Positions 6,285 through 13,353 of a stretch of DNA of 64,000 nt are shown here, one piece after another; the stretch's first letter is position 1, and each line of letters begins with the position of its first letter. The notes under the pieces are model-generated. The model was not told the origin of the DNA. It saw only the letters and a list, made by a program, of their open reading frames with translations, and ran no database searches. This stretch comes from Vishniacozyma victoriae (lineage: Eukaryota > Basidiomycota > Tremellomycetes > Tremellales > Bulleribasidiaceae): NCBI GenBank assembly GCA_017654735.1, contig JADPYG010000004.1:124001-188000 (forward strand). Reading direction: 5' to 3'. Position numbers and translations under genes: made by a program.

Positions 6285-9200
6285 CTATCGCCTATAATCA
6301 TACCCCTGTGACCTAGCTCCATATCCAGCAGGAGGAACATCCCTACCATATCCAGCAGGAGGTACATCCCTGCCATACCCACCTGGCGCGCCTCCACCAT
6401 ATGCGGCGGGAGGCGCATAACCACCATGCGTAGGTGGTGGAGGGGCGTATCCACCTTGAGCAGGTGGAGCAGTGTATCCTCCTCTGGGCGGGAGGGGTGT
6501 ACCGTCTCGAGCGATATTATCGAATGATCTGATGATATGTTCTGGTCGATACACAGGGCCTTGGCGTCAGCTTACATCCCAAAACTTGTCACAATGAATG
6601 AAGATAGGACATACCATCATAAGACCTATTACTAGGTAATTGCCCAATGAACCAAGGTAAAGCGGGAGCAAGATCCCCATGGTTCGAAAGAGCAGGTGAT
6701 GCCCTCACAGGCTGAGCCCTAGGTGGAACGAAAGGGGGTGGAGGGGGAGGTCCACTTCCAGCAGATGGATACCTATTAACAGGTCTTTCATCCCTAGGTG
6801 GAACTCGCGGAGGGGGGTTATATGAGGGTGAAGGCCTTTGTCTCTTATTAGGAGCACCGCCCGAGAATGAAGGTGATCGAGATGGTCGATTTCGTCGGGG
6901 TGATGGAGGCCTGTACTGATTTTGAGGTTGAGGGATTGGTGGTGGGTAATTTGTTGGTGGTGGGATTGGGTGATTTCCGTTGGTGTTGTGTTGAGGAATC
7001 GGGAGGGTTGGGGGAGGTGGAGCCATTTGCATTTGAGGTGGCATTGGCATGTGTGGGGGCTGTCGACCTAGACCTAATTCCCTAGTTCCAATTTGATCTA
7101 CTCCATCATATGTGAATCTCTGAGCTAGTCTCTTGAGTGTAGTGTCTGATAATTAGCCTCATTCTCCTCCAGATTGAAAGAGATGATATTGGGGAGAAAG
7201 ATGAGGTGGACATACCATTTGGAAACACTTCTTTGAACCTCGCTTCCAATTTATTGACAGCAGCTAAATCACCGTACATGTATTCGTACCTAGCCCAAGC
7301 ATCCCACAAAGGTCGAGATGTCTCTGCGGGGATGCTAAGTGCCGATTTCTCAAACAAAGCACGAGCATCTATCATCAGTCTCCTGATCCTTTATTCCTCG
7401 ATCAACGAATAACGAAGAAATGGGCTACTCACTTGTATCATCGTTGATAGATAGCAGAAATTGGAGATGCTTAATCACATAATCTACTTCATTTGGAAAC
7501 TTCTTAGCCCCCAAATCAAAGATCTTAATTGCGACCGCCGAGTCTTTGTTTGAATGGAACTCCATCATGGCTGATGCTTCGAATAAATGCCAAGTGAGAT
7601 GAGTTCCTCTTCTTGCTTTTCCGAAAATAGTCCTGGCAGCTTTTATTCCCTGATGTCAGCTTTCCTTCCCCAGCTATGATGAACGGAGAGAGAGAGCAAT
7701 AAATGAGACTCACCTCTGACCTCCTCGTAGATCGCATAAACATGATCCAAGAAATCGAAATTGCAGTTTCGATCTCTACAATCTCTTTCCCTCTTCTCTG
7801 CTCTACCATCTTTCCCCTACCCTCCCTCTCCTCGACTAATCGTTTCATCTGATCAGACATGTTGATCTCATCATCAGTCGTTTGAGGCGCATTTGGGATT
7901 TCAGGTCCTTTAGCAGCTTCCACTTCGGCAGAGACGGTCTTCTGGAGATTTTCAACTTCGGTAGTCAAGTTTTCGATAAGGGAAGTGTAGATTTCGGTAC
8001 AAGTTTTCGCATCTTTTTGGATCTCGAGTAAATCGGCACATGCGAATGTTAGGAGGACGCTGAGATTAGCTCAACCCCACCAAATTTGTAACAATCGTAC
8101 CTGCTTGGACAAGCTTGAATACCGTCTTTGAGAGTTTTTATTGCTTCCTCGATATCCCCAGAATCAGAATAGTAAGTCGAAACATAATGCCTGTACATTA
8201 GCCGCATCCATACCAAGGAATCGAGAGGGACGTACCAGAGCTCTGGGAAATGCCTCATCTGACACAAACATTGCTTCATGGCATATTTGATCCTAGCCGC
8301 CAAAGCCTCTTTATCCTCAATAACCAATTTATTCTCCTGTTCCCATTTCAGATAAGCTTTCCAACCGATTATCAGTCCACGCTCGAACCCGCTGAAAGTT
8401 GGTTTGGGAGGTAAGACACTTTGAGCGGCGTAGAGGGGATCGGTGAGTCTTTGGAGATCTTTGAGAGCTGTTCGTGCGGTCATGTAGGCAGGTGACCTCT
8501 CTGCTAGGAACTTTTTGGCCTGTTCATCAGCTCAGACCGGTTGTAAGGTAGAGAGAACGAGCTTACGGTCTGCTTATTGACATTATTCTCGAATGCGTCG
8601 TATGCTTTCCAGATTGCTTCGACATTATCGAGAGGGATACAGGTCGCTTTATGGTATGCTTTTCTTAGATTATCCTGCTTCTGCTGTTCTTCCCAATCAT
8701 TTGTCGGCTATCCATCAGCTTACGATCGATTGTAGGTGCGACTGAGCTCACCCTTGGGGCGCTCAGGAACTGTAGATAATCCTGCCATATCTCCCCACTA
8801 GCCCTATCCGTACCACAATCTTTCAATGCAAAGTCATATGCCTCGATAATAATTGCTCGAATAGGATCACTCAGTGTCGCGCCTTCCACAACTGGATTCT
8901 GACGACGAATATATTGTAGGTATTGTTCTACCATCAGCTTCATCTAATCGGATATGGGTGACATACTCCATACTGCGACATCGCTGATTCCGCCAGAGGA
9001 ACCTTTGATAGCTTTGGAGAATAGATTTTCGACTTCTGAGAAATTGTTTAAAGCTTGCTCTAGCTTGAGTAGGGATAGGAGGGGTTGGGTCTGCATGTCA
9101 GTTTTGGTCGGGAAGGGCAAAGGTAGACTTACAGCACTGGGACTATCCTTTTCGATCACCGCGTACCAAGCTCGAGCATCGTTGATCTCGGTATTATCGA

Positions 9201-10306
9201 TACTCCACCCAAACAAGTGGAGTAGAGCTTGGGTGTCTTTATGGTCTAATATCAGCATTCTCCCCAGATGACGATTATAAGGACTCACTGGCTCGCCAAC
9301 CAATGGCTGCTTCCTTGTTGTTGACAACACTGGGCGATTGTTCAGTGATTCCGGAAGGTAATTCGCTTAATGGCAGATTGGGCAGGTGGCTGTAAGGTTG
9401 TTCGCTCGTACTACTCGTCGATGGGAATTTCGTCTTGACTTCCTCAGTCTTGATGGGTTGTTGTTGGAATCTAGGATCGGAGCTTGCGGGGACAATTGGT
9501 TTGACGTCCTCGGCCGATGCGGCTACAGACGATTCGCGAGGTTGAGACGGATCGAACGAATTGACTTGTGCGCTAGCTTGTTCTATCGTCTGAGGGACGG
9601 ATGGGTCGTATGAAACAGATGTGGTGTCCTGAGGTTCGGATGGATCGTATCGAGCAGCCGGTGCCGATTCACCTTGGGGTTCGGATGGATCATATCTGAC
9701 CGCAGAAGCTGGCGCCTGATCTTGAGGTTCTGAAGGATCGTATCGCTGAGGTGGATCGTATGTATCCTGTGGTTCGGACGGATCGTATCTAGGTCTGACT
9801 TCCGCTTGTTCTTCCACATCCACTTGCATCGGACTAGTCTCTTCCTCTATCGTAGTCTCCATAACGACGTCGTGTGCTGGTTCTGCAACTTGTTCGGGCA
9901 AGACTGGAGCAGGTATATCTGCATTGACGATGTCTATAGTATCTTGTGCTTCCGTCACTGTCGCTGTTTGAGAAACGGGTTGGTCGTGAGGAGTAGCAGC
10001 CTGTGCACCAAGTCGCGGATCACTAGAAGGAGCAGGGGGAATAGCCGATTCTAAAGCCCCTTCTACTTTTTCTGCCTCTGCCATAAACGCGTCTGTCTGT
10101 GCAGCAGCTGCATTTTCATCATCATCAATTGCAATCTCATCCGAATTTACATCTGCCTGAGCTGCCTGATTCTCGACTGCCAAATGTGCTTCGGCAAGAC
10201 CCGACTCGACGTCGGTTAAAGTGTTTAATTGCTGGATTATTCCAGATGCTTCTGATGCCGATGAAGTATGATCCTGATCTGGTTCTTGTTCTTGAATGTC
10301 GGACAT
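6285..10306 (-). CDS. RNA14: mRNA 3'-end processing protein Rna14 / CstF77 with a YDPSEPQ-repeat N-terminus
   Basis: Twelve exons read leftwards (9289-10306, 9133-9245, 8974-9090, 8752-8943, 8567-8707, 8236-8519, 8101-8190, 7714-8059, 7433-7649, 7216-7368, 6615-7145, 6285-6559) give about 1158 residues. The centre is a HAT-repeat array (for example EIWQDYLQFL, RLTDPLYAAQ, WKAYLKWEQENK, LWDAWARYEYMYGD), as in Rna14/CstF77, a scaffold of cleavage factor IA/CstF that binds Rna15 and Pcf11. The first 340 residues are acidic, low-complexity and carry repeats of YDPSEPQ. The C-terminus is Pro-rich with a tandem GYGRDVPPA repeat. The exon 3-4 join needs a 30-nt intron (8944-8973); the obvious GTATGT donor at 8966 breaks the frame. 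That join is the weak point of the model. Confidence 0.9.
6309..6380 (-). repeat. 27-bp tandem repeat near the RNA14 C-terminus
   Basis: Two near-identical 27-nt units encode YGRDVPPAG twice, followed by a partial third (YGAR). They lie in the last exon just before the stop. This is a coding minisatellite that could vary in copy number between strains. Confidence 0.75.
9536..9790 (-). repeat. YDPSEPQ heptad-like repeats in the RNA14 N-terminus
   Basis: These are residues about 173-257 of the RNA14 protein. Four copies of RYDPSEPQ are exact; TYDPPQ, SYDPSVPQ and SFDPSQPR are degenerate. Copies are separated by 2-14 residues of Ala/Ser/Gln-rich linker. On the DNA the units drift in sequence, which suggests selection on the peptide or an old expansion. 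Confidence 0.9.
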
Positions 10307-11300: not shown

Positions 11301-11867
11301 CTAGAAATCATAATCATCCCCAGGCCCAGCAGCAGCAGCCGTCCCCGAATTCAGTTCACCTCCATATTGACCGAATCCACCAAGTCCAGCCTGCTCAGGT
11401 CCCATACCCATATCGATATTCTTGGCCTGATCCATGAATTGCTGCTTGACATCTAATGTCTGAGTGATCAAAGCTGCACAAGCTCGTTTCAGCGCGTCGG
11501 CGGGATTTGAGCGGTCATCCGTCTGAATCTTGATGACGATATCGTTCTCGAGGGGATGAGGGACTTTGTAGCCTGCGAAGAGGACTGAAGGATCTAATAA
11601 GAGTTGTCTTGATATCAGCTCTACAACACGCAGGGTTGGAACGAGCTGAACATACGCTCTTATCATGTTCCCTAACGTGTGATCCTGTTTACGTAGTGTG
11701 AATGTAGCTGCGTTTGGAATCTTGGCATCCTCCTCTATCTTCAGACTGGATCATGAGCGCAAGCACCAGTAGCGTCTACCAAGAAGGACCTACGGCTTTT
11801 CATCTTCATCCGGAATCCACGCCTCCACCCTATTCGGCTGATTCATAGCACTAGCTCCTCCCGCCAT
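11301..11867 (-). CDS. RPB11: RNA polymerase II subunit Rpb11
   Basis: Three exons (11794-11867, 11656-11745, 11301-11607) give 156 residues. The protein has the Rpb11/AC19 dimerisation fold signature: NRVEAWIPDEDEK, then KQDHTLGNMIRAQLLLDPSV and FAGYKVPHPLE, closing with a helical ALKRACAALI segment. Rpb11 pairs with Rpb3 in the polymerase assembly platform. The second intron must use the acceptor after CTGATATCAAG (exon 3 starts at 11607); the nearer-looking TTATTAG acceptor breaks the family motif. The last 40 residues are Gly/Gln/Ala-rich and not conserved in the family. An internal Met at codon 8 (MNQPNRVEAW) is an alternative start. Confidence 0.93.
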
Positions 11868-12288: not shown

Positions 12289-13353
12289 ATGGCATGGATA
12301 TCAAGTGGTCGTACTAACGACGAGGTGAGCTGCAGAAAGCTAGAAAGACCCCCGTCTCGGCTCGAGCTCATGACTAGCTGATAGACACGATGAGGAAGAA
12401 CGGTCTGATCAAATCTTCGAGAGTAGCTGAGGTGATTCTCGTCGACGCCGACTACTGATATCGCAGCTGATATACAGGCAATGAAGCAAGTAGACAGGAA
12501 GAACTACGTGGTAGACAAGACTAAGGCATATGAAGATTCACCTCAGTGAGCTCTTACGCCCCTGTAGTGGAGGCAAGCTAATGAACAGGCCAATAGGATA
12601 TAACGCTACAATATCGGCACCGCATATGCACGCCCACGCAGCTGAGATCTTGCTCTCCTTACTCCCAGCCAATAGTCATGGTGGGGCTATACTAGACGTC
12701 GGTAGTGGATCAGGGTATCGTAAGCTATATTACACCGCTGTCGCATGAGTTGATACGGTAGTGACGGCTGTATTTCATCATCTCGCACCAAATGCCAAAG
12801 TGGTCGGTATAGAACATATCAAAGAACTAGCCGAATGGTCGAAAGAGAATCTTCGGAAAGATGGTATTGAGGTCGGAGACGGGGGCGTAGAGATCGTCCA
12901 TGGGGATGGTCGATTAGGTGAGCTGTCATCACCAATTGAGATGGGAAAGCTGAGACCTAGGATCGCCTGAGCACGGTGGGTAGCTCCCATGATCTAGCTC
13001 ATGGAAGCTCCGTTCCAGATCATACACGTCGGAGCGGCGGCACCAAGTATTCCCCAACCACTAATCGATCAGGTCAGCTTCAATTCGCTCGATATATGCA
13101 TGTAAGCTGATAACAGTTGGCAAAGCCGGGGCGGATGTTCATACCAGTAGGCGAAGACACTCAAGGTATTTACGCTCATCAATCAATGAGGACGAGGCTA
13201 AAGGATAGATATTTGGCAAATCGATAAAACGACCGAAGGGGTCGTAACGAAAACAAAGCTTTTTGGAGTCATGGTCAGCCCCTCCTTGGAGTCATGGATG
13301 GTGCTGATGGGTAGTATGTTCCTTTGACTGATGCTGTCGAGCAGTGGCAGTGA
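12289..13353 (+). CDS. PCM1: Protein-L-isoaspartate O-methyltransferase
   Basis: Nine exons (12289-12324, 12378-12431, 12478-12545, 12589-12719, 12762-12917, 13008-13072, 13117-13165, 13209-13273, 13315-13353) give about 220 residues. Family motifs: VDRKNYV, the substrate-site segment [21 protein letters not shown], the SAM motif [49 protein letters not shown] and the closing GVMYVPLTD. The enzyme uses S-adenosylmethionine to repair isoaspartyl damage in proteins. The 12918-13007 join is uncertain: the only in-frame canonical splice I find fuses GDGRL directly to APFQII and drops about five residues usual in the family. Exon 8 and the next intron share a short repeat, GGAGTCATGG. The gene symbol is only by family name. 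Confidence 0.85.

What the first reader, a model, noticed from the sequence alone, without database searches (positions are those of the whole stretch)
9536..9790. CTD-heptad-like repeats in Rna14 with acidic residues at Ser2 and Ser5 positions
The N-terminus of this RNA14 has four exact and three degenerate copies of YDPSEPQ. The RNA polymerase II CTD heptad is YSPTSPS. Aligned, Y1, P3 and P6 are kept, S4 stands for T4, and D and E replace Ser2 and Ser5, the two phosphorylated sites. This could be a built-in mimic of the doubly phosphorylated CTD inside a cleavage factor whose partner Pcf11 reads Ser2-phosphorylated CTD through its CID. The repeats are read directly; the mimicry idea is inference.
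Basis: partly seen in the sequence, partly recalled or inferred. Interest (0 to 1): 0.75.

Follow-up and report, generated by a model that had tools for sequence, protein, structure and literature searches.

The report
CTD-like motif arrays in fungal Rna14
A core mRNA 3'-end-cutting protein in this fungus carries repeated short motifs that resemble the tail of RNA polymerase II, with an acidic residue where the tail is phosphorylated; similar arrays turn up in the same protein of other fungi, which hints at a built-in decoy or tether for a tail-reading partner.

Summary
RNA14 (minus strand, 11 exons, 1170 aa) has four exact YDPSEPQ and three looser copies before its HAT domain. Within one duplicated 71-nt block, 16 motif codons show 7 synonymous and 0 amino-acid changes, 7 spacer codons 6 amino-acid changes. 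The array is a lineage-specific insert: 23 of 27 other listed Tremellomycete N-termini have no [YF]DP. But three Cutaneotrichosporon Rna14s carry 4, 11 and 17 YDP motifs (mostly YDPSxPA) in the same region, and three Tulasnella Rna14s carry GYSPS(A/N/Q), one also YDPSS. Three Dacrymycetes have a single YSPS(A/G)PS. The AU test rejects grouping the window with Trichosporonales, so the arrays look convergent. Position 2 is D or S by lineage, S4 is nearly fixed, position 5 is free (E, V, M, R, A, N...). So the Ser2-side mimicry survives; the 'acid at Ser5' half does not. Best reading (about 0.4): a multivalent Tyr-x-Pro turn ligand for a CTD-interacting domain, most likely Pcf11's, like the Nrd1-interaction motifs in logic but not a member of that class. 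Binding is untested; Pcf11 and Rpb1 were not found in the held assembly. Condensate stickers, another reader, or a neutral array remain open.

The parts
6285..10306 (-). RNA14 gene, 11 coding exons, 1170 aa
   Evidence: hand-built splice model; Pfam Suf over aa 337-926
9289..10306 (-). exon 1: N-terminal region before the HAT domain, aa 1-339
10175..10243 (-). conserved block 1 (GIIQQLNTLTDVESGLAEAHLAV), shows that the N-terminus is orthologous
   Evidence: alignment
9809..9925 (-). conserved block (NADI..VLPE..PAHD..EEETSPMQVDVEE) directly before the array
   Evidence: alignment
9767..9787 (-). motif 1 YDPSEPQ, aa 174-180
9743..9760 (-). motif 2 YDPPQR (degenerate), aa 183-188
9722..9742 (-). 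motif 3 YDPSEPQ, aa 189-195
9674..9694 (-). motif 4 YDPSEPQ, aa 205-211
9629..9649 (-). motif 5 YDPSEPQ, aa 220-226
9590..9610 (-). motif 6 YDPSVPQ (degenerate), aa 233-239
9536..9556 (-). motif 7 FDPSQPR (degenerate), aa 251-257
9317..9361 (-). conserved LPxGLTxxSPSVxxN block between array and HAT domain
   Evidence: alignment
7075..9298 (-). Suf/HAT core, aa 337-926 (interrupted by introns)
   Evidence: mapped on the exons

Best explanation
The N-terminal tail of this Rna14 is a multivalent array of Tyr-[Asp/Ser]-Pro-Ser turn motifs that imitate the Ser2 side of the RNA polymerase II CTD heptad. I propose that each motif docks in the Tyr1/Pro3 pocket of a CTD-interacting domain (CID), most likely that of Pcf11, its partner in cleavage factor IA. 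The tail would then hold the CID on the cleavage factor when it is not on the polymerase, compete with Ser2-phosphorylated CTD, or hand the factor on and off the polymerase. Shown: the motifs, their location before the HAT domain, conservation of the peptide over the DNA, recurrence in other lineages, D/S exchange at position 2, freedom at position 5. Inferred: CID as reader, Pcf11 as the particular CID, and the tether or competition role.
For: Within one duplicated block (aa 173-195 against 204-226) the 16 codons of RYDPSEPQ have 9 same, 7 synonymous, 0 changed; the 7 spacer codons have 0 same, 1 synonymous, 6 changed (Fisher p 7e-5). The DNA repeat is old (71-nt pair at 73% identity; TRF lists none there at score 50). 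Y[DS]P[ST] in Rna14 N-termini: 50 seen against 0.84 in shuffles; 7 of 182 proteins have three or more, where 0.02 would be expected to have two or more (the pattern was chosen after seeing the arrays). The C-terminal regions, longer and twice as rich in Tyr, hold 1. Arrays in three lineages: window, Cutaneotrichosporon (P0027, P0028, P0029), Tulasnella (P0037, P0045, P0142). Window plus Trichosporonales as one clade is rejected, p-AU 2.7e-5, and parsimony needs 2 changes. The tail of P0027 has pLDDT below 50 over residues 1-218 and no secondary structure. Known CID complexes read Tyr1 and Pro3, often with a turn after Pro3, and short CTD mimics with acidic residues exist in Trf4, Sen1, Mpp6 (passages of PMC10317158; PMC4186968; PMC7110113). 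Pcf11 prefers Ser2P CTD.
Against: No binding or complex model was possible. Pcf11 and Rpb1 were not found in the held assembly (no positive control rang for the CID searches), so the organism's own reader and CTD are unseen. Position 6 Pro is kept in only 3 of 9 Tulasnella motifs. In the polar-fungus CTDs of PMC9451162 (passages) S2-P3 and S5-P6 are essentially invariant while positions 1, 4, 7 vary; in Rna14 position 5 is the free one, so these are not simply copied heptads. Most Rna14s in hand lack the array. Degenerate copies exist: of 51 Tyr in the three Cutaneotrichosporon tails 32 are YDP, 9 are YD without P, 4 are YxP with another residue at 2. Single motifs outside arrays (4 in 173 N-termini) are no commoner than other orders of the same letters. 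Arg precedes Tyr in 4 of 7 window motifs, unlike the acidic lead of Nrd1-type motifs.
Confidence: 0.4

Rival explanations
1. The motifs are Tyr/Pro stickers in a flexible tail that help Rna14 enter CTD- or RNA-rich condensates; no single folded reader exists.
For: Same protein has a second Tyr-rich repeat tract at its C-terminus (GGYAPP, PPAGYGRDV). Tyr-based contacts are tied to CTD phase separation (start of the abstract of PMC10519987 in the listing). Fungal CTD divergence is tied to phase behaviour (PMC9451162 passages).
Against: Stickers do not need a fixed residue order: 6 of 7 window Tyr and 32 of 51 Cutaneotrichosporon Tyr are in YDP, and the other orders of the same letters are rare.
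Confidence: 0.22
2. The motif is a linear motif for a reader other than a CID, e.g. a WD40 or other subunit of the cleavage machinery, or the HAT domain itself.
For: Order and recurring residues look like a domain ligand. Tulasnella motifs have Gly before Tyr in 8 of 9 and mostly hydrophobics at position 6, which a CID does not obviously demand.
Against: No known motif of this pattern came to mind (no motif library was searched). The single-chain AlphaFold2 model of P0027 gives the tail no confident structure, which neither shows nor excludes a partner.
Confidence: 0.2
3. A neutral repeat array that grew by tandem duplication in a fast-changing tail and has no role.
For: Absent from 23 of 27 other listed Tremellomycetes. 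P0029 shows near-identical 26-residue blocks, so arrays do grow by duplication. The window lineage is a long branch (0.84). The looser window copies do carry amino-acid changes.
Against: Motif codons changed only synonymously while spacer codons of the same duplicated block changed in sense, and the same peptide arose in the same tail of the same protein more than once.
Confidence: 0.12

Closest known systems
Nrd1-interaction motifs (NIM; ELM LIG_Nrd1CID_NIM_1) of Trf4, Sen1, Mpp6
   Different: NIMs are few per protein (one validated and two putative in Sen1), have acidic residues before Tyr and mimic Ser5P for Nrd1; here up to 17 motifs, no acidic run before Tyr in the window, Asp after Tyr at the Ser2 position, in a core cleavage factor subunit, reader unproven
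RNA polymerase II CTD heptads (YSPTSPS)
   Same: Y1, P3, usually P6; Ser at 4 for Thr; position 2 Ser in Tulasnella and Dacrymycetes
   Different: not in Rpb1, not contiguous, position 5 free, Asp at position 2 in window and Cutaneotrichosporon
Rna14/CstF77 of other Tremellales
   Same: same HAT core and shared N-terminal blocks
   Different: no motif array

Membership tests
Rna14 / CstF77 | Suf domain with HAT repeats over the core | tested here: met
   PF05843 534 bits; PDB Rna14/CstF77 matches
Nrd1-interaction motif (NIM) | Tyr-x-Pro (or Leu) core | tested here: met
   definition from PMC10317158 passages
Nrd1-interaction motif (NIM) | run of acidic residues before Tyr | tested here: not met
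   window contexts VRPR-Y, QDT-Y, PPQR-Y, SAVR-Y, PAAR-Y, SVS-Y, VNS-F
Nrd1-interaction motif (NIM) | in a disordered region | tested here: inconclusive
   only the homologue P0027 was modelled: pLDDT below 50 over residues 1-218; the window tail itself was not
Nrd1-interaction motif (NIM) | binds the Nrd1 CID | not testable with these tools
   no complex prediction or assay
Pol II CTD heptad | contiguous seven-residue repeats at the end of Rpb1 | tested here: not met
   in Rna14; motif starts 6-18 residues apart
Pol II CTD heptad | S2-P3 and S5-P6 pairs (essentially invariant in the CTDs of PMC9451162) | tested here: not met
   of 39 window and Cutaneotrichosporon motifs caught with [YF][DS]P, position 2 is D in 39 and position 5 is Ser in none
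   4 of 7 window motifs, 0 of 32 Cutaneotrichosporon motifs acidic at 5
Ser2-type CID ligand | binding to Pcf11 or Rtt103 CID through Tyr1 and Pro3 | not testable with these tools
   reader not found in the held assembly; eight tries of a further Pcf11 pattern search did not complete

The most novel reading that the evidence does not exclude
Rna14 of several fungal lineages independently evolved a multivalent, partly phosphorylation-independent imitation of the Ser2-phosphorylated Pol II CTD that occupies the Pcf11 CID inside cleavage factor IA. Going by the wording of a 2023 review (PMC10317158) it would be the first non-CTD ligand of a Pcf11-type CID, with Ser (switchable) and Asp (always on) versions in different fungi.
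Probability: 0.28. Interest if true: 0.85.

Novelty: new variant of a known kind. Interest (0 to 1): 0.6.

Why it matters
[quoted passage not shown] This array, in a partner of Pcf11 within cleavage factor IA, gives concrete candidate peptides with natural variants (D or S at position 2, many residues at 5). If it binds, it would show how a cleavage factor could hold or release the CTD reader without phosphorylation, and that CTD mimicry arose more than once in mRNA 3'-end formation.

Tried and rejected
Rejected: (a) chance composition (shuffles; letter-order and C-terminal controls); (b) recent slippage; (c) one array shared by descent with Trichosporonales (AU test; caveats: long window branch, and unseen N-termini of P0030-P0032 and P0124); (d) Ser5-acid mimicry as a general feature; (e) Cryptococcus TEYSPSVSQNG as a motif: it belongs to the LPEGLTxxSPSVxxN block, so it is not used as evidence, although two such matches are inside the raw count of 50.

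Led nowhere: the CID family and the yeast Pcf11 CID gave nothing in the held assembly, with no positive control; the CTD repeat family gave nothing either; the CTD heptad pattern gave 18 scattered sites against 29 for the reversed control; a shorter YSP-type pattern was too common to use. The only large polymerase subunit found reads, by my recognition, as Pol III Rpc1, so the assembly is probably incomplete or partly withheld. The first protein search listed only 5 proteins. Paper searches for Rna14/CstF77 with CTD-like repeats or a Pcf11 CID peptide ligand returned no paper on that point in their listings; that is no proof of absence, as only open-licence papers are held and listings are short.

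Limits and biases: the motif pattern was chosen after the arrays were seen. In one search motifs were caught with [YF][DS]P, so Pro3 and D-or-S at position 2 are conditions, not results; one search gives the unconditioned Tyr contexts. The figure of 7 synonymous and 0 amino-acid changes among the four exact copies (1.6e-5) is biased because they were picked for being identical; the block test is fairer, but its block was also noticed through the motifs, and its first spacer contains the degenerate YDPPQR. With the two looser copies that align (233, 251) pairwise sums are 50 synonymous differences over 68.3 sites and 25 nonsynonymous over 246.7. Single matches outside arrays are not enriched. 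Only 117 of 182 N-termini are 60 aa or longer; each protein search scored under 8000 candidates, and 120 of 171 and 120 of 225 hits were listed. The 27 Tremellomycetes leave out Phaffia (P0040), which has a 232-aa N-terminus without the motif. The Dacrymycete table holds 2 matches from the HAT core by my slicing error; the 3 real ones are. In one search the parsimony count left out P0030-P0032, P0124 (no N-terminus), P0034 and P0038. In one search, 245 tetrapeptides of the tail could be scored.

Full report
What is there. On the minus strand at 10306-6285 lies an 11-exon gene coding for 1170 aa. Its core is a Suf/HAT domain (PF05843, 534 bits, aa 337-926), and by sequence it matches solved Rna14 and CstF77. 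The first 333 aa precede the HAT core. They hold YDPSEPQ at aa 174, 189, 205 and 220, and looser copies YDPPQR (183), YDPSVPQ (233), FDPSQPR (251). Motif starts lie 6 to 18 residues apart, so these are dispersed motifs rather than a true heptad run. Six of the seven tyrosines of the N-terminus sit in a YDP.

More than chance. Of 20000 shuffles of the window N-terminus, 3 reach three [YF]DP and none more; seven are seen. The DNA pattern of the exact motif occurs 4 times in the held 11.58 Mb, all here. A looser YDP[ST]xP-type pattern has 30 sites, 5 of them here and the other 25 single in their frames; the reversed pattern has 23 sites, so most of the other 25 are noise.

Old, and kept by selection on the peptide. 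The repeat at DNA level is a 71-nt pair at 73% identity, and TRF lists nothing there at its score limit. Within that duplicated block (aa 173-195 against 204-226) the 16 codons of the two RYDPSEPQ have 9 same, 7 synonymous and 0 changed codons; the 7 spacer codons have 1 synonymous and 6 changed (Fisher p 7e-5). Among the four exact copies the smallest number of changes is 7, all synonymous, but these copies were picked for being identical. With the two looser copies that align (233, 251), pairwise sums are 50 synonymous differences over 68.3 sites and 25 nonsynonymous over 246.7. So the array grew by duplication some time ago and the motifs were held while the spacers changed.

Relatives. Three protein searches gave 181 Rna14-like proteins. 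In an alignment with 13 other Tremellomycetes the window shares conserved N-terminal blocks, and the array is an insert after the block ending VDVEE. Of 27 other listed Tremellomycetes, all with at least 100 aa before the core, 23 have no [YF]DP there; the four that do are the three Cutaneotrichosporon and one Naganishia with a single AYDPEVMP. Phaffia, not in that list, has none either. Cutaneotrichosporon cavernicola, oleaginosum and spelunceum carry 11, 4 and 17 YDP motifs, mostly YDPS[MRV]PA. Three Tulasnella proteins carry three motifs each: GYSPSA, GYSPSN, GYSPSQ and once EYDPSS. Three Dacrymycetes have one ADYSPS[AG]PS each; YSPSAPS has 5 of 7 letters of YSPTSPS. In all, Y[DS]P[ST] occurs 50 times in 182 N-termini against 0.84 in shuffles, with 7 proteins holding three or more; the C-terminal regions, longer and richer in Tyr, hold 1. 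Two of the 50 are a Cryptococcus block that I do not count as motif. The pattern was chosen after the arrays were seen. Outside the arrays the 4 remaining matches are not above other letter orders.

One origin or several. On the core tree the window is a long branch (0.84) without a supported place inside the Tremellales and Trichosporonales; its best identity is 60%. Forcing it together with Trichosporonales is rejected (p-AU 2.7e-5), and two changes are needed on the tree. Long-branch effects and the unseen N-termini of four metagenomic Trichosporonales-like proteins are the caveats. Tulasnella and Dacrymycetes lie outside the Tremellomycetes. Convergence is the simplest reading.

What the motif is. 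Motifs were caught with [YF][DS]P, so Pro3 and D-or-S at position 2 are conditions. Within that: position 2 is D in 7 of 7 window and 32 of 32 Cutaneotrichosporon copies, S in 8 of 9 Tulasnella and in all 3 Dacrymycete copies; S4 in 6 of 7, 30 of 32, 9 of 9; position 5 E4 Q2 V1 in the window, M10 R9 V8 A2 G2 L1 in Cutaneotrichosporon, A4 N3 Q1 S1 in Tulasnella; P6 in 6 of 7, 31 of 32 and only 3 of 9. Without the condition, 6 of 7 window Tyr and 32 of 51 Cutaneotrichosporon Tyr are YDP; 9 more of the latter are YD without P and 4 are YxP with another residue at 2, which look like decayed copies. Glu at Ser5 is not general; outside the window only the single-copy YDPEEYR of P0069 and YEPSEHQ of P0004 have an acid there.

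Mechanism. In CID complexes the domain reads Tyr1 and Pro3, in many with a turn after Pro3, and NIM peptides of Trf4, Sen1 and Mpp6 use the same Tyr-x-Pro pocket with acidic residues standing for phosphates (passages of PMC10317158; PMC4186968; PMC7110113; ELM class in PMC10767929). Pcf11 is in the same cleavage factor and prefers Ser2P CTD (PMC4350670 passages). The two reviews differ on the Ser2 phosphate: one says that it makes no direct contact with Pcf11, the other that Lys104 contacts it. Either way Asp at position 2 should be tolerable or helpful (inference), and D-P-S-x is a good turn (values from memory). The tail of P0027 is modelled without confident structure, pLDDT below 50 over residues 1-218; I had no contact or error map, so docking on the HAT domain is neither shown nor excluded. 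Hence my best reading: a multivalent Ser2-side CTD mimic for a CID, Pcf11 first. The step from motif to CID is inference, at about 0.4.

Against. No binding data; reader and CTD of this organism unseen. The acidic lead of NIMs is missing in the window. In the polar-fungus CTDs positions 1, 4, 7 vary while S2-P3 and S5-P6 stay (PMC9451162 passages), which is not the pattern of conservation here. Most Rna14s in hand do without the array. Tyr-rich stickers for condensates are a serious rival, the more so as the same protein ends in GGYAPP-type repeats.

Verdict. A real feature with signs of selection, wrongly described as a double phospho-mimic but more interesting than first stated because it recurs. 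Functionally a candidate CTD mimic; by membership neither a NIM nor a CTD. New variant of a known kind. Papers were seen as passages only (PMC7110113, PMC4186968, PMC4350670, PMC9451162, PMC10317158, PMC10767929) or as listings.

Noticed in passing
window 6285-6470 (-): C-terminus of the same Rna14 has tandem repeats (27-nt x2.3 and 30-nt x2.0) giving GGYAPP and PPAGYGRDV; a second Tyr-rich tract in one protein.
   Followed up: partly
window 11301-11750 (-): Upstream neighbour of RNA14 looks like the Pol II subunit Rpb11 (PF13656 Rpb3/Rpb11 dimerisation domain; the name Rpb11 is my reading).
   Followed up: partly
window 12749-12970 (+): Exon of a protein-L-isoaspartate methyltransferase (PF01135).
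   Followed up: no
window 9440-9481 (-): SDPRFQQQPIKTEE aligns with Kwoniella SDPRIKSD, PDPRVKAE, ADPKIKQE: a small shared element with a sumoylation-like psi-K-x-E look (motif recalled).
   Followed up: no
G000 (held assembly): 11.58 Mb in 17 contigs shows only one large RNA polymerase subunit, which I read as Pol III Rpc1, at C11:288137-291016; the assembly is probably incomplete or partly withheld.
   Followed up: partly
P0045, P0142, P0037 (Tulasnella Rna14): GYSPSA / GYSPSN repeats close to the real CTD heptad, with a Ser-Pro at position 2; perhaps the better system for a binding test.
   Followed up: partly
P0034, P0035, P0036 (Dacrymycetes Rna14): One ADYSPS(A/G)PSA motif per protein amid diverged flanks.
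   Followed up: partly
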